The translations under genes and the position numbers were made by a program. Below, one piece after another: positions 37,150 through 57,386 of a stretch of 64,000 nt of DNA. Source of the stretch: Adineta ricciae (Eukaryota; Rotifera; Eurotatoria; Adinetida; Adinetidae); contig CAJNOJ010000036.1 in the NCBI GenBank assembly GCA_905250025.1, positions 372,001 through 436,000 on the forward strand, written 5' to 3'. Each line of letters begins with the position of its first letter. The stretch's first letter is position 1. The notes beneath the pieces were generated by a model. It had not been told where the DNA came from and ran no database searches. It worked only from the letters and a program-made list of their open reading frames with translations.

Positions 37150-38829
37150 TTATGGATTTACAATGAATGTTTTCTGGCAATGCAGATGGGGACACGTAGT
37201 TAAAGAGCCCAGTTTGTAATCCGCATTCTTCCATAAAACGGAACCAAAGCAGCAAGGACAATATACCCGTTGAAATGGTTTCTTGCAGTTATCGTACGGA
37301 CAATTCACAATTGTTCCTTCTTTATAAGTCGCATCTTTCCACGATATCGTTTGAGCGCAGTGAGCACAGCACAATTTTTGAAATGATTTCTTACAATCGT
37401 TTTGAGGACATACAGTGATGGATCCCATTCGATACTTGGCATCTGTCCACCGCATTGACTGATAGCAATGTGGACAGATCAACTGCTGAAATGTTTTCTT
37501 GCAATTTTCATGACCACAGACACTAACTGCACCTTCTTCGTGATCAGCATTTCGCCATATATTCGAACCGGAACAATGAGGGCATTCGATTTGCTGAAAT
37601 TTTTTCTTACACTTTGCATGTGGACAAGTAACAATAGTTCCTTCTCGATAATTGGCATTCTTCCACATAATTGAGTTCATGCAATGTGCGCAACTCAAAT
37701 GTTGGAACATCTTTTTGCAGTTTTCATATGAACACGTAGTAATTAATCCTTGTTTATAATTAGCGTCTTTCCATTTATTCGATCCGAGACAGTGCGGACA
37801 ATTCAGCTGTTGAAAGATTTTCTGACACGTTTTATGCTGACATTTAATTCGTAGTCCCGGTTTGTAGCTGGCATCTTTCCATACATTCGATTGAGAACAA
37901 TGAGGACAGTTTAGTTGTTGAAACGTCTTCTGGCAGTTCTCATACGGGCACGTAATAATTTGACCTTCTTTGTAACTTCGATCTTTCCACACAATTGATC
38001 CGGAGCAGTGAGGGCAGTTTAACTGTTGAAATACTTTCATAAAAGTCTTCTGAGCACAAACAACAGCTTTTCCATCGATATAATCACCATTCTGCCATGT
38101 ATTCGTTTGCGAACAATGCGGACAGCATATTTTTTTCCACCCGACAAACATATAAACATTCAGATCGCTTTTATCAGGAACTATCTCAAGTAATAACCCA
38201 TATGTTAAAATGACTGAACGTTGTGCTGTCTTCCATTCAATTATTTCGTTTGGTACGTATGGACATATGGTCTCTTGTCTTTGCCGCGCGCCTACTGTTT
38301 CGGCTTGAACTGTGATAGAATCCGGTTTTTGTTTGCACTGAAGCGCAACTTTGATTTTATAGTGTTTATTCGTCTTCGTGGATGTAAATGTGTATGTTTC
38401 AGCATAGCAATCAAGAGCAGCGTATTTTATTGTCGGTGTGGTAAAGACAAAGACTTCGTCGGGAATGTGACCACCACGTATGTTGAGCCTTTTCCCATCT
38501 TTTGTTATATCATTAGGCAGAAGAAATTGCCGATGCTCAACAATGGACTTCGCAGACTCGATACTTGTTCCATGATAGCAGTTTGCCCATGTCTTCCATG
38601 CATTATGGTGAGCAGTCCATCTTTCATCAATATATATACCAAAACGAGTCCATCCGCGGGGAATTACATAGGTGAAACCAGCAGCAAAGAATACGCCCTG
38701 GCTGGATGCTGGATAACAATTATCGCAATAGCAACGATCATGAGTAGACTCACGAAATAGAGCGGGCCATTCCTGACTAGTAAGAAACTCTTGACCTATC
38801 CGTATTCTTTCGCATTTAATCATGGTCAT
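37150..38829 (-). CDS. ART/PARP-like (NEURL4 C-terminal-like) domain plus nine zinc ribbons
   Basis: Intronless, 559 residues. Residues 1-230 form one domain: CYCDNCY, YVIPRGWTRFGI, WANCYHGTSIESAKSIVEH, VFVFTTPTIKYAA and NEIIEWKTAQRSVI. This is close in pattern to the C-terminal domain of neuralized-like protein 4, and the His (YHGT), Tyr (IKYAA) and Glu (NEIIEW) are spaced as in a PARP/ART H-Y-E triad. Residues about 233-559 are nine tandem 36-residue zinc ribbons of the form CPHCxxxxxWKDxxYKxGxxxxCPxxxCKKxFQQ, each with two CxxC-type pairs (the first lacks one). No signal or TM segment, so cytosolic or nuclear. Catalysis is possible but unproven. A tandem paralogue follows at 39432. Confidence 0.8.
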   Translation of the reverse strand: MTMIKCERIRIGQEFLTSQEWPALFRESTHDRCYCDNCYPASSQGVFFAAGFTYVIPRGWTRFGIYIDERWTAHHNAWKTWANCYHGTSIESAKSIVEHRQFLLPNDITKDGKRLNIRGGHIPDEVFVFTTPTIKYAALDCYAETYTFTSTKTNKHYKIKVALQCKQKPDSITVQAETVGARQRQETICPYVPNEIIEWKTAQRSVILTYGLLLEIVPDKSDLNVYMFVGWKKICCPHCSQTNTWQNGDYIDGKAVVCAQKTFMKVFQQLNCPHCSGSIVWKDRSYKEGQIITCPYENCQKTFQQLNCPHCSQSNVWKDASYKPGLRIKCQHKTCQKIFQQLNCPHCLGSNKWKDANYKQGLITTCSYENCKKMFQHLSCAHCMNSIMWKNANYREGTIVTCPHAKCKKKFQQIECPHCSGSNIWRNADHEEGAVSVCGHENCKKTFQQLICPHCYQSMRWTDAKYRMGSITVCPQNDCKKSFQKLCCAHCAQTISWKDATYKEGTIVNCPYDNCKKPFQRVYCPCCFGSVLWKNADYKLGSLTTCPHLHCQKTFIVNP

Positions 38830-39431
38830 TGTAACAGTATCAAGCTGTGCGAAATGTCAAACGATATGAAATGAATAGAGGAGAATCACATATTATACCT
38901 ACAGTTTTTGAACTTTTCTAAAGCATTTATTCTTGAGATTTAGGTCAAGAACAAGGTATAATACTCTTCACTTCTTGATAAATAATAGAATTGTTTCAAA
39001 GAATTTAACTATCGAACGGCTCTAAAAAAAACTTCTCTTTCCCTCTTGCATAGCAGAAACACACTATACATCGGTCTGTTTTTGTAAGGAAACTTCCAAC
39101 TGAGCCACTCAACTGTAATTTTGTCTATTTTTAATCATGTTTTTTTTTCATGGGTAAAATACTCCTCATCAATGAGAAAGGAACTCCACTAAATAATTAT
39201 TTTAGAACAATTACTTCAAACTAAATTTTTTTCTTCTTTCCATTCTGAAACAGTCGTATCTAGAGAATGATTTGTTATAACAGACGTTGTGAATTTTATT
39301 GATTAAGATACGAGAAGTTGTTATAAAATAGGGCGTTTGAGTAAGTGTTAAACATGTATCAAAAGTTCGAATTACACTTTGTCCGCTATGTATGTACAGT
39401 ATAAATAATTTAACGAGAGTTAGAAAAGAAC
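38830..39431. other. Spacer between the two zinc-ribbon genes
   Basis: AT-rich, T-rich spacer on the same-strand tandem pair: promoter of one and 3' end of the other. Nothing else. Confidence 0.5.
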
Positions 39432-40939
39432 TTATTGAGGATTTATTGTAAATGTTTTTTTACAGTCTTCATATGGGCACACTGCAGGTGTTCCTAATGT
39501 ATAATTCGTATCTTTCCATACAATCGAACGCGCACAATGTGGACAATTAACTTGTTGAAATGTCTTCTTGCAATTGCTGTATGCGCAAGTATTGATTCGT
39601 CCTTCTTTATAAGTGCCATTATTCCATGTATTTGAGCCATGACAATGTGGACAGTTGACTTGCTGAAACGTTTTCTTACAATTTTCATACGGACATGTAA
39701 ATAGTTTGCCTTGTTTGTAATCAACATCACTCCACAAAATAGTACCGGTACAATGCGGACAATTAATTTGTTGAAATTTCTTCCTACAATTCTTATGTGA
39801 ACAATTATAAACTCTACCTTCTTTGTAGTCGGAATCTTTCCAGATGTTCACACCGGAACAATGTGGACAGTTAAATTGTTTGAATACTGTCTTACAAGCT
39901 TTACACGCCCACGTAATGAAGTTTCCGTCTTTGAAATTACTATCGTCGAGCACGTGCACTTGTGAACAATTAGGACAAGTAATCTCGCGTGTCTTTCCTT
40001 TCCCAGTTGGTTCTTCACTAGGAGGTGGAGGTGGAGCTGGAGCTTGTACTTGAGTCTGTGCTGGAGGTGCCGGTGGATTGGTTTTGCCAACATCGGGAAG
40101 TATTTGTAGTAACAGTCCGTATGGCATCACAGCCGATCGTTGCTTTGTTTTCCATTCAATCTGCTCGTTTGGTACATGTGGGCATATCGTAACTTGTCGT
40201 CGACGCGCGCCCACTGTTTCACCTTGAACGACGAATGAATCTTGTTTTTGTTTACACTGAAGCACGACTTTGATCTTATACCGTTTATTTGTTTTTGCTG
40301 ACGTAAATGTGTATGTCTCAGTATAACAACTAAGAGCAGCATACTTTATTGTAGGTGTCGTAAATAGATAACATTCTTCTGGAATATGTCCAGCACGTAT
40401 TTCTAATGTTTTGCCATCCAATGTGATATCNATGAATCTTGTTTTTGTTTACACTGAAGCACGACTTTGATCTTATACCGTTTATTTGTTTTTGCTGACG
40501 TAAATGTGTATGTCTCAGTATAACAACTAAGAGCAGCATACTTTATTGTAGGTGTCGTAAATAGATAACATTCTTCTGGAATATGTCCAGCACGTATTTC
40601 TAATGTTTTGCCATCCAATGTGATATCCCGAGGTAACAGTAGTTGTCGGTGTTCGACAATCGATTTCGCACGTTCAATACTCGTTCCGTGATAACAATTT
40701 GCCCATGTTTTCCAGACGTCATGGTGTTTCGCAAAGGGCTCATCGGCGCGTATGCCAAAGCGAGTCCATCCTCGCGGAATAATATACAATTGACCGGCGA
40801 CATTATACACGTCTTTATAAGTTGCTAGATAACATTTGTTGCAATAGCATCGATCATAGGAAGGATTACATAACGTGAAAGGCCAATTTTGACTAGCGAG
40901 AAATTCTTTACCGATTTGTAGATTATCGCACTCGCTCAT
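39432..40939 (-). CDS. ART/PARP-like domain plus five zinc ribbons (interrupted by assembly duplication)
   Basis: Tandem paralogue of the gene at 37150. The N-terminal domain is strongly conserved (CYCNKCY, YIIPRGWTRFGI, WANCYHGTSIERAKSIVEH, FTTPTIKYAAL, NEQIEWKTKQRSAV). It is followed by a Pro/Ala-rich linker (NPPAPPAQTQVQAPAP) absent from the paralogue and only five zinc ribbons, the last ending CPYEDCKKTFTINP. The frame is broken at 40431 by a single N joining two identical 196-base copies (40235-40430 and 40432-40627). Removing 197 bases gives 1311 coding bases, or 436 residues with no gap in homology. The break is therefore almost certainly in the assembly, not in the gene. Confidence 0.8.
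40235..40627. repeat. Exact 196-base direct duplication around a single N (assembly join)
   Basis: 40235-40430 and 40432-40627 are identical and separated by one N at 40431. The sequence is coding for the ART-like domain, and the paralogue has it once. This is what a scaffolder leaves when overlapping contigs are abutted without merging. Confidence 0.9.
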
Positions 40940-42157: not shown

Positions 42158-42791
42158 TTAAGAGATTCTTCGTGGTGAATGAAGATCACCCCTGTTTCTG
42201 TCAATTGTTGGTCTTGGCGAACTCGCTCTGTTAGTATGTTTGTACGAATATGAATAATTGAAAGCACACGCTGAACGTTGTTTATCTGACCATTCAGTAA
42301 GAAACAGTAGTTGACTGTGCCTCGGTGGAATAGAATCATGCATGGTACCAGGTAGCTTGGAACAGCGAGAGTGAAAAATATTTCTTCCTTCGGTAATATC
42401 AATGTCAACATCGAAATTTTTTTCTCTTGATAGATTCTGGACCATAAGAATGAAAGAAGAGGATTTACGTGATGTTGTATAGAAGACAGCATCTGTTGTC
42501 TAAACGATATAATATATTATGAAAAGTAGATGCACGTGCAAATACAATTTTTAATACTCACCTTTGTTCTTTTGTTTATTCCCACTAATGCTCCTATAAG
42601 ACAATCAGTCAGCAATGTTCCTTTTCTTACTTCAGTAGTTAATTCAAGTCAGCAATGTCCAAGGTACCATACTTTAGGAATTCCTAGAGTTCCTAAAAAA
42701 TACAGCAAAAACTAATCAATTCCTTACAGAACTGGGAACTCACTCTCATTTCCTACACAGTTCCCTATCAATTCCATCCTCCATTCCTAAC

Positions 42792-42890
42792 NNNNNNNNN
42801 NNNNNNNNNNNNNNNNNNNNNNNNNNNNNNNNNNNNNNNNNNNNNNNNNNNNNNNNNNNNNNNNNNNNNNNNNNNNNNNNNNNNNNNNNN
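42792..42890. other. Assembly gap (99 N)
   Basis: Run of N inside the hAT-type element between the left inverted repeat and the tandem array. The true length is unknown, since an internal tandem repeat is hard to assemble. Confidence 0.98.
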
Positions 42891-42891
42891 G

Positions 42892-43340
42892 ACAGTTATA
42901 TATCACTTTCTCTATGACTCTCTCAGTTCCTTAAGGTACTGTGTTAGGTACCTACTAGGTACCTTGAGGGAACCTAGCTCAGTTCTGGGAACTGTCAGCA
43001 GAACTGAAACAGTTCCTCGATTTTCAGCTTTTCCAGGAATAATTCATCAGACAGTTATATATCACTTTCTCTATGACTCTCTCAGTTCCTTAAGGTACTG
43101 TGTTAGGTACCTACTAGGTACCTTGAGGGAACCTAGCTCAGTTCTGGGAACTGTCAGCAGAACTGAAACAGTTCCTCGATTTTCAGCTTTTCCAGGAATA
43201 ATTCATCAGACAGTTATATATCACTTTCTCTATGACTCTCTCAGTTCCTTAAGGTACTGTGTTAGGTACCTACTAGGTACCTTGAGGGAACCTAGCTCAG
43301 TTCTGGGAACCGTCAGCAGAACTAAGGCAGAGGCTTCGTG
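42892..43340. repeat. 159-base tandem repeat inside the hAT-type element
   Basis: Near-identical units start at 42892, 43051 and 43210 (ACAGTTATATATCACTTTC), a period of 159. The third unit diverges after about 43310. Each unit contains short palindromes such as GGTACCTACTAGGTACC. The open frame 42964-43347 is only the repeat read through, since 159 is divisible by three. Confidence 0.92.
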
Positions 43341-45665
43341 TATGTGATTTCATTATTGTTGAATAGAGTCTCACTGGTATGTATGTTCATAGAGAGAGCG
43401 AAGTGTGATATGTCTGTATTGAACGTTGTTGTATAGCGGGGTGAGGTCAGTTCCCTGTTAGGGAAATGTCGGTCAGTTCTACTGATTTCCTCAATTCCTT
43501 TTGTAGGTATTGTCGTGGCATCAGTTCCTTGGTTATGAACTTGGGAATGGTAGTAGTGACTGTGAATAGGTATTGAGGTGATGTGTGAGAAATAAAGTAA
43601 TGTGTTAGGAATGGAGGATGGAATTGATAGGGAACTGTGTAGGAAATGAGAGTGAGTTCCCAGTTCTGTAAGGAATTGATTAGTTTTTGCTGTATTTTTT
43701 AGGAACTCTAGGAATTCCTAAAGTACGGTACCTTGGACACCCCTCATTCAAGTGGGACGCTTGAATGAATAACCAGTGTGTAGTCTCTATGCTTGTCTGA
43801 CGATCTCCAAAAACTGATGGAGTATGGTACTAAGACATAATCGCCAGCTGCTAGTGCATCTGACCAATATGTAAATCGTCCACGGGAAGATACGATCCTA
43901 TGGTGATGTGCGCCGATGATAGGAGGCGATCTTGAGTTATCAACATCACATAAAACAAACGACTGTGTATGGAAACTACGTGTTTTTCTCGCATGACGGT
44001 GGTGTATAAGGCTGATTTTGATCATCGATGCTCTACACAGCAAACAAGAAAATGAGTTGTACAATGTCAAATGCATATAGCCGACGTTACTTACTGTGGA
44101 ACGTGAAATCGATAGCTCAACACATCATCGGTAGACGATCGACTAAATCTTCCTGCTTCACGAACATCAAAGTCACTACTTTTGTATGTGGACACTGTGA
44201 TCGATGAGAAATATCGAAGGAATCGACTCCATGAGATCCAGAATGCACCTGTTGATCGTCGTGCAGGATTAATCGTTCGAAGTTGTTTTAGGACAGATTC
44301 AGTTACTTCATCTTCTCTGTATTCTGAACGAGAATGAGGGTCACGAACAAGCACGAATCGAGATGAACTGTCAACCAACGTGTGTGCTGCAAGTATGGAG
44401 AATGCATGGTTACCATGAATATGCACACGAGCATATTCATCTCGACTAATACCAGTTCCACCCGTTGAAGCACCAATCAATAGCCTGCGATAGAGGAATT
44501 TTTCAAGATTTCAAACACTTAAAAACTATGCTTACTCAGATTCATATGCGGACAGCAGCTGCCCCCAAACAGTGTCAAGGTAGACTGGATCAGTAGATGA
44601 TTGCAGATCGATATGCTCACAAGCAGCACCCGTCAGGAGTTGCAGACCTTCAAGCATGGTACCACTTCTCAGACTAGCATATGAGCCAAATACTTTTGCA
44701 CACGCTTTTTCGATCAATGGCACATAAAACTGGCGTCGTTTTGAATGCGAAAAAACAAGATATTTGTGTTTAGTACATGGAAAATAGTCGTCAACGATGA
44801 TTGTTTTCCACAGTCCATTGTGACAAATACGAACCATGTAGACACCCTCTTTGTTGACTTCTTTCGTAAGAAGAATATGCTGTAGAAGTTTGGGTTGTTC
44901 TGAGATGAGTGCGAGAGCAGCCATAAACCAGCAATTTCCAAGTGCACCTTGTTGGATATCACTGGGCTGTGGAGAAGAGAAGATCGTCAGTGGTAATGAT
45001 CGATCTTCATGAGCAATGGGAGCAACATCTCCTATGCGTAACCATTCTGCTACATGGTCAAATGATTTCTCTCCAAGAGATCGATTATTTGGTGTGAATT
45101 GATCGTCGACAAAGTTAGTTTTATGCTAAAATGCAATAATTTGCATCAGTGGTTGCTTGTAAGGAGTCGAAAGAAAAAAATCTATTCATCATTTGCAATA
45201 TATTACCGCTTTGCAATATTCGATTACATGTCGAAACATTTTTTCTGCTTCGTTTTCATGTTTTTTTCGTCGATCGCGAACGAGTAATGATGTACTTGTT
45301 AATAGCGAAGCATTTGCGGAATTAATCAGTTGTACTTTATTTTCGCTCTAAACGAAAATGAAGAAATTCTCGATCATACACGTTAGAAATTCATGACTTA
45401 CGGCTGAGGACTTTGCTTGTCCGCAAGCAGTACATCGTTGACTAATCATCAAATTGTCGAATGTACAACGTGGACAACTCCACTTTGTTATAGATAAAGC
45501 CGCATCTCCAAAAGGATTGACAATGCTCTGATTGTTGTTTTCGCACATTTCACAAATGGGAAAGTTTGCTATGGGATTGTTGAAAGTACATTGGGAACAA
45601 GACCATTGAGATTGATTCAATAAGAATTGCAGATCCAGATCGTCGGTCAATGAGCCAGTTGCCAT

Positions 45666-46488: not shown

Positions 46489-48896
46489 CTAAAATGGTCG
46501 CGGTGAATGAAGATCATGTTGTGCACTGTCAATATCCGGCAGTGATTCACTCGTGCGTGATTCTTGTTTGTATGAACATGAATAACTCAGATAAGTTAAT
46601 CCATTGTGCTTTTCGGTCCATTCGGTTATGAAAATCAATTGTCGATATCGGGGTGGAACGGAATCGTGAGTATGAAAGGGTAGATCAACGTGACGCGAAT
46701 GACGAACATTTGTTGCTACATTGACACCAATGTTCACATTTAAATATTGTGTTGATGAAGAATTTTCTGCTACAAATATTTTCATTGCCACCTTACTAGA
46801 TGTTTTATAGAATGCGACTTCTTTTTCCTGAGAATGACAATGAAGAAAAACAAGAATTATATCCATTTAAAATAATAAGTAGATATTTACTTGTTTTCTC
46901 ACACCCGTTTTTATTAATGCCGCTATAATACAATCAGCAAGAAACGTAGCTCGCTTGTTCTCAATAGTTAAACTAAGTTGAACGTTAGAATGTATAACAA
47001 TGGTATAATCGTTATCTTTCTTTGTCTCCCGCCAGAAACTGATTGAAAATGGTATCAGCACATAATAACCAGCACGTAGTGGCCCTGACCAGTACGTTAG
47101 TCCTCCACGTTTACATACCAATATACATTCGCGTTCACCAATACTATCTGTTGATCCTGCTTCATTGATATCACAAAGGACAAATGACTGCGTGTGAGAA
47201 ATAGGCGATGTCCGATCAAGACGATGGTACAAAAGACTGATGTTAATCATCGATGCTCTACACAATAGATTCCACACCGTTTTTTCACAATGTCAACTAC
47301 GTCCAAGAGATATTACTTACTGTGGAACGTGAAATCGATAGCTCAACACATCATCGGTTGACGACCGACTAAATCTTCCTGCTTCACGAACATCAAAATC
47401 ACTACTTTTGTATGTGGACACTGTGATCGATGAAAAATATCGAAGAAATCGACTCCATGAGATCCAGAATGCACCTGTTGATCGTTGTGCAGGATTAATC
47501 GTTCGAAGTTGTTTCAGGACAGATTCGGTTACTTCATCTTCTCTGTATTCTGAACGAGAATGAGGGTCACGAACAAGCACGAATCGAGATGAACTGTCAA
47601 CCAACGTGTGTGCTGCAAGTATAGAGAATGCGTGGTTACCATGAATATGCACACGAGCATATTCATCTCGACTAATACCAGTTCCACCTGTCGAAACACC
47701 AATCAACAATCTATAACGAAAGTATTTCCTCTCTTTGACAACATTAGATAATCAGGCCTACTTCGATTCGCATGCAGACAAAAGTTTAGCCCAAACAATA
47801 TCACTATCGAGGATGCCATTTGGTGGGTGTAAATCAATGTGATCACATGGTGCCCCCGTCAGAAGTTGCAGACCTTCACGCATATTGCCACTTCTCAGAC
47901 TAGCATATGAACCAAATACTTTTGCACACGCTTTTTCGATCAATGGGACAAATAGCTGACGTCGTTTTGCATGAGAAAATACTAGACGTTTATGTTTCGT
48001 GCATGGGAAACAGTCGTCAACGATGATAGTTTTCCACAGTCCATTGTGACAAATACGAACCATGTAGACACCCTCTTTGTTGACTTCTTTCGTAAGAAGA
48101 ATATGCTGTAGAAGCGATGGCTGCTCTGAGATAAGAGCGAGAGCAGCTATAAGCCAACAATTACCAAGTGCTCCTTGTTGGATATCGCTGGGCTGTGGAG
48201 AAGAGAAGATGGTCAATGGCAGTGCTCGATCCTTACTAGAGACAGGAGCAACATCTGCTATACGCAGCCATTGTGAAATTTCTACAAACGAATCAGTTCC
48301 GATCGAACTCGTTGATGGAATAAAGCTATCATCTACAAAGTTCGTCCTAGCCTAGATACAATGAAGAGACGTATTGCATAAGAAATATTTTGTTCTATAA
48401 AAGTAATGTTGCATAGAAAGGAAGTAGCATTTACCTTTTTGCAATAATCGATAATATGCTGAAATATTTGCTCAGCATCTACTTCATCTCGACGTCGACG
48501 ATCATCAACAGCTAAGGACATAGATGTCGATGATAGCGTAGCGCTTGAATTGATGAGAACGACAGGCGCAGATTTCTAAATTAGAATATACAAATACGTT
48601 AGTTCTTATTCAAAAGTCAGAGAAACTATTACACTCTTTTTAGTATAACCACATGCATTACAATGATCATCACTCGTTTCATTGTTCAATGTGCATTGAG
48701 GGCATTGCCAGATTGACGTTGAACGCTCAATACCGGACAGATGATGTAGCGAATTGTAATTAGCTGCTTGTTCGCACATGTTGCAACGAGGATATGCTGA
48801 TAGTGGATTTTCAAAAGAACACGTCGGACATGGCCAAACATTGGTAATCGGAAGTGAAAAGAAGGCCGCACGCGCATTGTGAAGTCCAGTAGTCAT
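46489..48896 (-). CDS. CAPN15: Calpain-15-like (SOL family) protease, copy B
   Basis: Six exons: 48896-48633, 48575-48435, 48351-47762, 47710-47321, 47257-46891 and 46827-46489, totalling 2091 bases and 696 residues. Two RanBP2-type zinc fingers (WPCPTCSFEN, WQCPQCTLNN), which bind ubiquitin in related proteins, precede a CysPc calpain core: Cys200 in QQGALGNCWLIAAL, His358 in HGNHAFSIL. The third catalytic position is Asp380 (LVRDPHS) instead of Asn, and the Trp of the family NPWG is missing. C-terminal beta-rich domains follow (THTQSFVLCDI, GGLTYWSGPLRAGYYVLIPFS). Cytosolic, with no Ca-binding EF hands, as in calpain-15. Activity is uncertain because of the Asn to Asp change. Confidence 0.9.
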
Positions 48897-52647: not shown

Positions 52648-54286
52648 CTAGTCCGACCAAGGTCGAATACTACAACTAACATTTCTTGCACTGTTATACA
52701 TGTGCCATTGATTGTTATGATGGTAGAAAACTGTGTCGCTATTGATAATAGCAAATAACTCGGGTCCACGATCTTTTTGTCGAGTCTTTTGATAATAAGA
52801 TGCTGCCATGTCATATGCATCACCTTCTCGATGAAGTTTTCGTTTCAAATCGTACCATGATGATTCAATACCCTGGGCATAAACGATTGTGCGATCGGCA
52901 GTTTTATTGCTGAGAAAAATAAATTCGCAGATTTCTCGCATATTTCGAGCTTCTGCAATGAACAAGAAAATACTTCTGTAAGTAACGATACGATTTTAGA
53001 AACTGTCTAACCTGTTATTATCTTTTCCTTCGAAGAAGTTCGTTTCATCCAATGAAACTGTAACATTACTATTTGGTCGTTGTGTTGTTTTCCCGTAGCA
53101 TAACTAAATGTATAATTTTCAAACGATTCAGTAAGAAAATGTCCATTGGTAGAACCAAATACACTGCTTTTTCTTCCATCTGTGGTGCACAATTGTATTC
53201 CTACGATCGTACCATTGTTTGTATACATATTAATTTTATTAATATTCTCGTTCGATTGTAACATAAACGTGTCAGAGAACAGCCTTTCTTCGGGTATGGC
53301 TAAATGGGATGATTGATTATTCGAATATAGGAATCGTACCGATTTTAAGGAAATATTTGTCCATTCTAATCGAATACCGATACAGCAATCGGTATAAGAT
53401 AATAGAAGATCTCTCGCATCATCGAATGATCTGTTTGTCCAGAAAAGTTTATTTCCATACGGTGAACCTTCCTTCATCGTATAAACGAACTCTAATAATT
53501 GAACACAATTGTAGATGATTTTAGTGATCGATATATACTTGCCGTGTTGACGCAATGAGGATTGTTCTTCGAAATTTGATTTTCTTAGATGTCTTATCGC
53601 ACAAAAAGATAATAATAGGAGAATCATTGATAGGATAAAAATAATGATTAATTTCATATACAGTTGATTTGATTTTGAGTAGAGTATTGATCGAACGATT
53701 GAAAAACGTTTCTTTATTTTCCGTTCATTAACTGTATACGTTTCCTTAGGCAATGCTATCGTTCTAGATTGTATGTTTCCACATAGTAATTCAGCTACTA
53801 GTTCGTCTGAAGACGGTGAACCATTCACAGACATACTATGAGAGTAAGCTAAGGAAAGAAGCGCTAAAAATGAATGTGAAGTTCCGACGTTTTCTGTACC
53901 TATCGAACTTTGTATACCATCGTCCGTACAGCTCGGTGAAACTGGCTCAGCAATTGACGTGTGTATCAAACGGGATCTGTATTCTACGAGTAGATGTTCA
54001 GATTTCCTATTGAAGAGAAAAAAAAAGATATTCGAGACGAACCATTGAGTTGCTCGACGATGTCAAAACATTGAATTTGTTCGAAAATGTTGATTAAATT
54101 ATCGAAATTATCGTCAGCAATAAAACCTCGTTCGAAAAGACAATCAAGTAAACGCAGAGTGCCATCCGGTGTACAATCATCTCGGCATTTTCGTGGAATT
54201 ACTTTTCCAAGTGCAAAATGGAATGCATGACGATTAGCATCAGACAATTGATTCGATATATCAATTAAAATACTGCGGAACTCCAT
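52648..54286 (-). CDS. Death-effector-domain protein with TM helix and jacalin-like ectodomain
   Basis: Three exons: 54286-54043, 53983-53012 and 52952-52648, totalling 1521 bases and 506 residues. Residues 1-80 look like a death effector domain: FRSILIDISNQLS, FALGKVIPRKCRDDC and LRLLDCLFERGFIADDNF. A Ser-rich linker leads to a basic segment (RKIKKRFSIVRSIL) and one TM helix near residues 190-209 (MKLIIIFILSMILLLLSFC). The outer part of about 290 residues has N-glycosylation sites and a strand-rich stretch (GTIVGIQLCTTDGRKSSVFGS, YTFSYATG) resembling a jacalin-type beta-prism. With no signal peptide it would be a type II protein with the DED inside the cell. It looks like a receptor that could start DED (caspase-type) signalling; this is inference from layout. 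Confidence 0.72.
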
Positions 54287-55941: not shown

Positions 55942-56637
55942 TCAATCTTCGCTATCTTCTATTAACTCCACTTCAATTTCCCATCGACATCCATAATAAT
56001 GCACACATATGATTCGTAACTTTGTTCCCACACACAATAACGCTTCCTTTTCTTCGCTGTAACTACTCCACTTCCAAATGTTCGCGAGATTGTGCTTCGC
56101 CTTTTCACTCGACCTTTCTGTATTCAATATTAAAACTGCATTTCCATCATACACTAGCAATCGATCGATTGTAAATGATAAGAACGAGTTTGTGTAGTAA
56201 TAACTTCCTTTTCGTTCAATATAATATCGAATTTCAGTGTCACTTAGTTGTAAACCACGATAATAGATTGGTTTAATATTTGTTTGCACTAACGCACGAA
56301 TCAACGAGCGAAGTTTATTGACATAAATCCAATCGATATCGTCAAAATGAGCACTGAGTAAATTCAGATTGGTTTTCATATAACAATCATTTGTTCGACT
56401 GTTCGTGTACGATTTGATCACATCTAGCATATCGTTAGTAAGTTCATGTTCGAGAATGGTATCAGGATATACATGTTGAAAGAAACGATGATAAATATTG
56501 TTGGAAAGAAGTTTACAATCGATTGAGTTCGTTTCATGGTTGTAGACGAAATGATCTGTTTCAAAATCTTGTGCAGTCGAAGCGAGTGCTTTTGGTAGAT
56601 AACGATTGTTACGAACATTGATAAGACAACGTGCCAT
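55942..56637 (-). CDS. R-S-ExE type ADP-ribosyltransferase
   Basis: Intronless, 231 residues. The catalytic triad of arginine-type mono-ADP-ribosyltransferases is readable in order: Arg127 in YYRGLQLS, the SxS-like strand in TNSFLSFT (about 151-154), and the ExE motif E196-K-E198 in EEKEALLCVGTKLRI. A helical N-terminal region precedes the fold. No signal peptide, so it probably acts in the cytosol, moving ADP-ribose from NAD to protein arginines. Bdelloid rotifers carry large expansions of this type, usually with TPR or other partners; here the domain stands almost alone. A second, degenerate relative is at 60605. Confidence 0.85.
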   Translation of the reverse strand: MARCLINVRNNRYLPKALASTAQDFETDHFVYNHETNSIDCKLLSNNIYHRFFQHVYPDTILEHELTNDMLDVIKSYTNSRTNDCYMKTNLNLLSAHFDDIDWIYVNKLRSLIRALVQTNIKPIYYRGLQLSDTEIRYYIERKGSYYYTNSFLSFTIDRLLVYDGNAVLILNTERSSEKAKHNLANIWKWSSYSEEKEALLCVGTKLRIICVHYYGCRWEIEVELIEDSED

Positions 56638-57386
56638 GCTGTTTTTTTAAGGTAATCGAAGAGAAGAACACATGTCGCACACTCCAGTTAAGTTATTGCA
56701 CCACACTCGACTAAAAACACATTTGACAAGACAATTCTTGACAATGAAATGACTCATTATGAATCATACAAAGAGTATCTGCTTTGCATGAACCTAAACA
56801 GTCTGATCAATGCTCATTCACACACTTTCGACAAAGACGAAGATAAAATTATGCATTTTTTTGTAATGACAACGAATGAATCGGATGACTATTGAACTCA
56901 AGACACACAACACGCCGCGTGACTTTCCTCCTGAACTATTAGAAACTTTTCTTTTATTAATTATGAATGTTTAAAGAACTTCTTCTGCTAATCGGATTAT
57001 CTTTCGATTTATTAAAGAAGAGTCTATATACATTCTATGGGATAAACAGTCGACTTCGAATAGAAACAGAATAGCGAACGTTGAGAACGGATGATAACCA
57101 AGGAAATGAATGTGATTAGATAGATCTCAATAGGTTTGTAACAGGATATGTCTATTTTGCTCTTTGTGCGCATCGATGCGTCGAAATATTATTTTCATGT
57201 GATAGATCACATTAAAAAACTTATCGTCTTCTTTTTTTCTTTGATGAAATCTCTTTTATTCTCCTCAGAATTGTGTAGAAATCCCCTTTTTACAGTTAGC
57301 ATAGTATCGATATACAGAACATTGTCGCACAAGTTTTCTTTTCTTGCTTTAGTACAAAAACTTTGAATAGTTAATGATTTGTGGAT
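56638..57386. other. Divergent intergenic region
   Basis: Promoters of the ADP-ribosyltransferase gene (minus) and the receptor gene (plus). The short frames at 57148-57366 and 57207-57422 overlap on opposite strands and look non-coding. Confidence 0.5.

What the first reader, a model, noticed from the sequence alone, without database searches (positions are those of the whole stretch)
52648..54286. A type II membrane protein with a death effector domain inside
An N-terminal DED-like domain, one TM helix and a large glycosylated, partly jacalin-like ectodomain occur in one 506-residue frame. DEDs are normally in soluble caspases and adaptors or near receptors via FADD. A receptor with its own DED would link an outer lectin-like sensor directly to cell-death signalling, a candidate new immune receptor type.
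Basis: partly seen in the sequence, partly recalled or inferred. Interest (0 to 1): 0.72.

Follow-up and report, generated by a model that had tools for sequence, protein, structure and literature searches.

The report
Membrane lectin-like receptor with death-effector tail
The gene joins an inside-the-cell death-effector domain to an outside lectin-like domain through one membrane helix, and the same animal genome holds dozens of sister genes that keep the inner domain while the outer one differs, which looks like a home-grown family of danger-sensing receptors.

Summary
The core holds. On the minus strand, 54286-53007 encodes 406 residues: death effector domain (39.1 bits, cut-off 35.9), one membrane helix, jacalin-like ectodomain. 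Two corrections. And no caspase link was found: none of 61 DED hits lies within 6 kb of any of 95 caspase-domain hits.

The finding is larger than stated. The window's own genome has 61 DED hits. I held DNA for 56; by my reading 38 begin genes whose second half is one of six types: jacalin-like, NHL, TPR, DM9, GH18 or Cys-rich. Of 39 models tabulated, 29 have a membrane helix; 8 of 9 others checked hold a skipped hydrophobic segment. Forty-two of 44 first introns listed are phase 1. DED pairs show purifying selection. I read this as a lineage-expanded family of type II receptors that cluster DEDs on ligand binding; ligand, partner and outcome are inferred. Oyster membrane proteins with an intracellular DED are in print, with a different layout.

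The parts
54043..54286 (-). Exon 1: start codon and death effector domain (residues 1-81)
   Evidence: Pfam DED residues 3-85, 39.1 bits over cut-off 35.9; ninth of 61 DED hits in the genome by score
53984..54042 (-). Intron 1, 59 nt, phase 1, directly after the DED
   Evidence: Two models agree; phase 1 in 42 of 44 first introns listed. An alternative 32-nt intron, giving 515 aa with exon 3 included, is possible
53007..53983 (-). Exon 2: linker, membrane helix, ectodomain, stop codon 53009-53007
   Evidence: similar to paralogs in the own genome, best E 8.7e-17
53595..53651 (-). Membrane helix, residues 193-211
   Evidence: Mean hydropathy 3.16; flank charges +3 before and +2 after, so orientation is only weakly marked in this copy
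53127..53351 (-). Part of the ectodomain matched by Pfam Jacalin (residues 293-367); sugar-loop motifs changed
   Evidence: 24.0 bits for the exon-2 piece, 21.9 in the 406-aa form, cut-off 22; alignment
52648..52941 (-).
   Evidence: 19 other hits in the genome at E <= 10, 16 of them at E <= 4e-6; eight relatives translated, three aligned; no Pfam family

Best explanation
It is one member of a lineage-expanded family of single-pass, N-inside (type II) membrane receptors. The constant part is a cytosolic DED, a mostly acidic linker and a signal-anchor helix; the variable part is an ectodomain, here jacalin-like. Shown: the gene order, the shared DED and intron phase, a membrane helix in most models, and different ectodomains in one genome. 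Inferred: ligand binding by the outer domain clusters the receptors, the inner DEDs nucleate a DED assembly, and that recruits DED proteins of the same cell (candidates seen: small DED-only proteins, DED-helicases) to trigger an immune or death response. The window copy lacks the canonical jacalin sugar loops, so it may bind something else or act as a non-binding partner.
For: DED and jacalin in this gene; in 7 paralogs scanned, jacalin over its cut-off in 7 of 7, DED at E <= 1.8e-6 in 7 of 7 and over its cut-off in 2 of 7. 38 of 56 readable DED hits head a gene with an ectodomain class. Helix in 29 of 39 models; skipped hydrophobic segment in 8 of 9 others checked. N flank more basic in 23 of those 29 (sign test P 0.0012). 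Profile of 21 DEDs of this genome finds caspase-8, cFLIP and FADD DEDs first among solved structures (best 5.4e-8). DED pooled pN/pS 0.19 over 14 of 16 pairs. C2 tandem pair: DEDs 92.5%, jacalin parts 43% identical. The jacalin label needs 5 changes on the DED tree, at least 2 forced by well-supported branches.
Against: No transcript data. No DED near a caspase or Death domain in this genome. The R-x-D-L motif of canonical DEDs (recalled) reads C-x-D-I here. The window DED alone found no solved structure. Structure models inconclusive. Sequons only mildly enriched after the helix (1.46 against 1.04 per 100 residues). TPR domains, one of the six types, are usually cytosolic (recalled). The window gene has no close copy, so selection was not tested on it. 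Tree support is weak (9 of 36 inner branches starred).
Confidence: 0.6

Rival explanations
1. The DED-membrane proteins are membrane platforms (adaptors) rather than primary receptors: they receive signals from DED-bearing RIG-I-like helicases in the same genome, as MAVS does by CARD from RIG-I, and the outer domain only places or tethers them.
For: The genome has DED-helicase genes: tandem DED plus DEAD/ResIII (L001/L002) and single DED plus helicase (L007). DED-bearing RLRs in lophotrochozoans are in print (PMC8998645, passages). No DED near a caspase domain.
Against: Six ectodomain types are not needed for a platform; MAVS has its anchor at the C-terminal end and no ectodomain (recalled).
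Confidence: 0.17
2. The DED acts as a brake or decoy: membrane-tethered DEDs with changed contact surfaces sequester DED signalling proteins (cFLIP-like), and the ectodomain senses self.
For: C-x-D-I instead of R-x-D-L in the window DED; changed sugar loops.
Against: Purifying selection on the DEDs and 38 members with different ectodomains fit sensing better; selection alone does not exclude a brake.
Confidence: 0.1
3. The 506-residue model is right: exon 3 is a real C-terminal extension, added to this one receptor by fusion with the neighbouring small gene.
For: Donor and acceptor are both present and give an open 506-aa frame; the splice model preferred it.
Against: Own stop codon after exon 2, as in 6 of 11 paralog models that end shortly after the jacalin part; relatives of the tail have a Met at or near the matching point in 7 of 8 read.
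Confidence: 0.18
4. Gene-model artefact: a DED gene and a separate membrane lectin gene lie side by side.
For: No RNA evidence was available.
Against: The order recurs at 10 of 18 Pfam jacalin hits and at the window, against 0.013 of 18 expected by chance, with phase-1 first introns in 42 of 44 listed.
Confidence: 0.03

Closest known systems
Crassostrea virginica lineage-specific family (PMC8195603, section 10 read, other passages)
   Same: Membrane protein with an intracellular DED and a large lineage-specific expansion with variable parts
   Different: There an N-terminal Cys-rich ectodomain comes first, then helix, then DED plus TRADD-N and further inner domains; here the DED is N-terminal, Pfam listed no TRADD-N, and the variable part is the ectodomain
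TNF-type death receptors (Fas, TNFR1)
   Same: Outer sensor and inner death-fold domain in one single-pass protein
   Different: Type I with TNFR repeats and a death domain (recalled); here probably type II with a DED, so no FADD step would be required
FADD, caspase-8 and cFLIP DEDs
   Same: Family DED profile matches them best among solved structures
   Different: Those proteins are soluble (recalled); R-x-D-L motif absent in the window copy
Jacalin-related lectins
   Same: Profile match of the ectodomain; some paralogs (C144, C550) and L050 keep GG..FDD-type and G...G/A...D loops
   Different: Window copy has changed both loops; membrane-bound
Rotifer secreted lectin survey (PMC8878817, passages)
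   Same: Screens lectins, jacalin included, in rotifers; reports one canonical jacalin protein in D. carnosus and a jacalin-like fold in Brachionus lectins
   Different: The screen asked for secreted proteins without membrane regions, so it would not list this family

Membership tests
Death effector domain family (Pfam PF01335) | Profile score over the curated cut-off | tested here: met
   39.1 bits against 35.9
Death effector domain family (Pfam PF01335) | Six-helix death fold | tested here: inconclusive
Canonical FADD/caspase-8 type DED | R-x-D-L motif in the last helix (recalled) | tested here: not met
   C-x-D-I in the window copy; R-x-D-L in the stand-alone DED of L003. Not filed under this type
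Jacalin-like domain (Pfam PF01419) | Profile score over the curated cut-off 22 | tested here: inconclusive
   24.0 bits for the exon-2 piece, 21.9 for the 406-aa protein; clear only through paralogs
Sugar-binding jacalin-related lectin | Loops GG..FDD and G...G...D of the binding site (recalled) | tested here: not met
   Both changed in the window copy; in the other seven rows kept in C144, C550 and L050, partly in C2b and C238, first loop lost and last D replaced by E in C29 and L084
TNF-type death receptor | N-terminal TNFR repeats and C-terminal death domain | tested here: not met
   Pfam lists only DED, jacalin and a sub-threshold WBP-1 match at E <= 10
Oyster ecto-TM-DED-TRADD-N receptors | TRADD-N domain beside the DED | tested here: not met
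   No TRADD-N match listed at E <= 10
Type II membrane protein | Cytosolic N-terminus, extracellular C-terminus | not testable with these tools
   Only indirect: DED begins at residue 3, N flank more basic in 23 of 29 family models, 5 of 6 sequons of this copy after the helix

The most novel reading that the evidence does not exclude
A modular receptor system: one constant intracellular DED-plus-anchor cassette, joined through a phase-1 intron to at least six interchangeable ectodomain types (jacalin-like, DM9, GH18-like, NHL, TPR, Cys-rich), forming a main cell-surface pattern-recognition repertoire of this animal and wiring recognition straight to DED assembly without a FADD-like adaptor.
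Probability: 0.4. Interest if true: 0.88.

Novelty: new variant of a known kind. Interest (0 to 1): 0.73.

Why it matters
A family with one conserved DED tail and differing outer domains gives a ready list of candidate receptors, several with a guessable ligand class, and a case in which a DED sits in the receptor itself. It also shows how lectin surveys limited to secreted proteins can miss such genes.

Tried and rejected
Viral contig scan with the exon-2 protein: 14 stretches matched a pattern, none a relative. Window DED alone against solved structures: no match. Ectodomain plus tail against solved structures: seven matches, all within the exon-3 tail and all to designed or consensus repeat proteins, best E 4.1e-6 summed over repeats but 0.78 for the best match's strongest single stretch; set aside because Pfam found no TPR in the tail. 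Single-sequence structure models: ectodomain pLDDT 33.5, not used; DED model: VIA-align showed no death-fold row, viral models no match at E <= 0.001; plain PDB fold search never ran. DED-caspase or FADD-like gene: none by distance; one search had used only part of the 95 caspase rows and repeats it with all. Long introns or divergent DEDs could hide one.

Paper searches for the architecture, listings only unless a paper is named in the report: 'death effector domain' with rotifer (3 papers), with transmembrane, lectin, invertebrate, expansion (10), bdelloid/immune/death domain (4), 'death effector domain' with jacalin (1, PMC7148315, not opened), RLR/rotifer/death effector (75 with at least two of three terms, 15 listed), Adineta/caspase/apoptosis/immune (20 listed), DED/transmembrane/bdelloid rotifer (0), six terms (31 with at least four, 12 listed), rotifer/jacalin (6). 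I saw no report of this architecture in what was shown; subscription papers and preprints are mostly not held.

Rotifer identity: the test (spliced-leader sequence in the own genome) did not complete: met a busy machine.

Full report
What is there. On the minus strand an ATG at 54286 opens a DED exon, followed by a 59-nt phase-1 intron (54042-53984) and a long exon with a membrane helix and the ectodomain. Pfam gives DED at 38.8-39.1 bits over its cut-off of 35.9; jacalin is borderline in the window copy (24.0 bits for the exon-2 piece, 21.2 and 21.9 for the 506- and 406-aa forms, cut-off 22).

Correction of the extent. The exon-2 frame has its own stop at 53009-53007, shortly after the last jacalin strand. 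Of 11 paralog models with a jacalin part, 6 stop shortly after it (C2b, C238, C550, C29; C216a; L084); C144 and C755 run on, C2a merges with the next gene, C20 and C100a break off early, which I take for faults of the script. Eight of these loci were translated: each shows a short open frame there, 115-197 aa from stop to stop. In seven an in-frame methionine lies at or near the start of the similarity (L052, L053, L054, L056, L057, L059, L060); L058 has an unread base there; in L053, L054 and L056 an in-frame stop lies 3-6 nt before the methionine. That these are stand-alone genes is inference, as introns were not modelled there. In the window the matching methionine is at 52941, with an AG acceptor 11 nt before it, 65 nt after the receptor's stop. 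I therefore take the receptor to be 406 residues (54286-53007) and the tail to be a second gene. An operon resolved by spliced-leader trans-splicing, a mechanism known in rotifers (PMC3795323, passages), would explain the tight spacing, but neither the organism nor a leader was confirmed.

A family, not a freak. The window's own assembly is held (unnamed, 130.5 Mb, 1033 contigs). It has 61 DED hits at E <= 10, 13 over the cut-off; the window copy ranks ninth; none in 14 control genomes. I held DNA for 56; five were not fetched (C430:1290, C537:3097, C198, C14, C49). By models and Pfam the 56 are: 13 with jacalin-like ectodomain (ten with Pfam jacalin, the window, and L084 and C216b by similarity only), 10 with NHL repeats, 3 TPR, 3 DM9 (two; L073 at 25.4 bits just under the cut-off 26.2, with no DED listed for its short model), 2 GH18, 7 Cys-rich without a Pfam ectodomain family (L012, L024, L061 scanned; L010, L013, L019, L020 by eye), 3 hits in two DED-helicase genes, 2 stand-alone DED proteins, 1 internal repeat of a DED, and 12 whose models were too short or broken to place (L018, L025, L062, L065, L067, L069, L070, L074, L076, L078, L079, L080). 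So 38 of 56 carry the DED-plus-second-domain design. The classes were assigned by reading the outputs, not by a blind rule. Many of these DEDs are weaker than the window's: only 2 of 7 pass the DED cut-off, though all 7 have E <= 1.8e-6.

Membrane helix. Of 39 models put in one table (36 of the 38 plus L018, L070 and L074; C216b and L073 were left out), 29 have a 19-residue window of mean hydropathy 1.9 or more after residue 90. In 23 of these 29 the N flank is more basic than the C flank (sign test P 0.0012). Of the ten without, nine were checked and eight hold a hydrophobic stop-free segment between DED and ectodomain that the script had skipped (not L068; L020 was not checked). AT-rich introns can give such segments by chance, so these eight are weaker evidence. 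Sequons: 1.46 per 100 residues after the helix against 1.04 before it, a mild difference.

Conserved design. In 44 loci whose first-intron position I listed, 42 have phase 1, and 35 have it 244-259 nt after the ATG. The list was typed. Left out of it: models without an intron (L012, L062, L065, L080), L078 (no ATG), C216b (268 nt, phase 1), L002 and L025 (256 and 253, phase 1), and L001, L003 and L004 (not phase 1). The genome-wide co-occurrence is far over chance: 10 of 18 Pfam jacalin hits lie within 3 kb downstream of a DED hit on the same strand, 0.013 expected.

Selection and shuffling. Sixteen DED pairs were compared; pooled over the 14 with 0 < dS < 1, pN/pS is 0.19, single pairs 0 to 0.47; left out were L019/L020 (no difference) and L015/L011 (saturated). 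Three ectodomain pairs were compared: on C2 the DEDs are 92.5% and the jacalin parts 43% identical; C216/C29 86% and 66%; C550/C755 both about 97%. On the DED tree (42 rows; 9 of 36 inner branches starred) the jacalin label needs 5 changes, at least 2 forced; the window DED groups with the GH18 receptors (94/88), but it is a long branch and its place is unsure. This fits exchange of ectodomains or conversion of DED exons, and does not prove it.

Relation to known DEDs. A profile of 21 DEDs of this genome finds caspase-8 (5.4e-8), cFLIP (6.1e-5) and FADD (3.7e-4) first among solved structures; AIM2 pyrin follows at 0.044 and Dronc at 0.074. The window DED alone found nothing. The canonical R-x-D-L motif (recalled) is C-x-D-I in the window and R-x-D-L in the stand-alone DED of L003. 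Structure models made without an alignment were inconclusive.

Ectodomain. In an eight-row alignment, C144, C550 and L050 keep both loops that form the jacalin sugar site (recalled: GG..FDD and G...G...D, with G or A in the middle); C2b and C238 keep them in part; C29 and L084 have lost the first and have E for the last D; the window copy has lost the first and has a changed last loop. So loss is not unique to the window copy, and several members may not bind sugars in the usual way.

How it may work. Shown: the architecture. Inferred: outer ligand clusters receptors; inner DEDs assemble; DED partners follow. Candidate partners in the genome are small DED-only proteins (L003, L004; L003 as typed is 123 aa and scores 43.9 bits) and DED-helicases. 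A DED-caspase was looked for and not found: over all 61 DED, 95 caspase-domain and 33 Death-domain rows, the closest DED-caspase pair is 11.6 kb apart on opposite strands and the closest DED-Death pair 159 kb apart (the Death list stops at E 0.1). A jacalin-like domain also occurs in one frame with an ART and a caspase domain (L050, 630 aa: C14 109.8 bits, ART 24.1, jacalin 20.7 under its cut-off of 22), so in this animal the same kind of domain is tied to a caspase by another route; I did not test that protein for a membrane helix.

Known precedents. Kaur and colleagues (author names recalled) describe about 50 oyster proteins with Cys-rich ectodomain, helix, DED and TRADD-N (PMC8195603; section 10 read, other passages). 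DED-bearing RLRs in lophotrochozoans are in print (PMC8998645, passages). A rotifer lectin survey asked for secreted proteins without membrane regions (PMC8878817, passages), so it would not have listed these genes. Placozoan and ctenophore immune surveys were seen by passages only (PMC6321704; PMC11797021); the passages shown do not describe this design. The searches are listed under Tried and rejected.

Verdict. The DED-helix-ectodomain architecture is about 0.95 likely, receptor function about 0.6, death signalling open.

Noticed in passing
L050:76-1965 (own genome C314): One 630-aa frame with ART, caspase (Peptidase_C14) and a sub-threshold jacalin match: a sensor-like domain fused to a caspase.
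   Followed up: partly
L001, L002, L007 (own genome C210): DED-helicase genes resembling RIG-I-like receptors, one with two DEDs in tandem.
   Followed up: partly
L003, L004: Small stand-alone DED proteins; L003 keeps the R-x-D-L motif; my models ran on into a neighbouring transporter-like gene.
   Followed up: partly
L005, L006 (own genome C124): DED-membrane proteins with a GH18 ectodomain whose catalytic motif reads DGIDLNWRD instead of the usual DxxDxDxE (recalled), so possibly a non-enzymatic chitin-binding form.
   Followed up: partly
window 52648-52941 and 16 genome hits at E <= 4e-6: A family of small proteins of about 100-120 aa with no Pfam match in the two scanned.
   Followed up: partly
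own genome C242:106575-107905, plus: Caspase-domain pieces followed within 0.3 kb by a weak Death-domain piece.
   Followed up: no
window 44535-45125 and 47761-48351, minus: Two similar calpain protease frames in tandem, 3226 nt apart.
   Followed up: no
window 42656-43739: Inverted repeat of 136 nt at 99% enclosing three 159-nt tandem copies, possibly a mobile element.
   Followed up: no
window 37256-39842: Ten copies of an 86-nt repeat, mostly 108 nt apart, within two minus-strand frames; one frame gives weak zinc-ribbon-like Pfam matches.
   Followed up: no
window 55945-56646, minus: Frame next to the receptor that looks ART-like by eye; no Pfam match at E <= 0.001.
   Followed up: no
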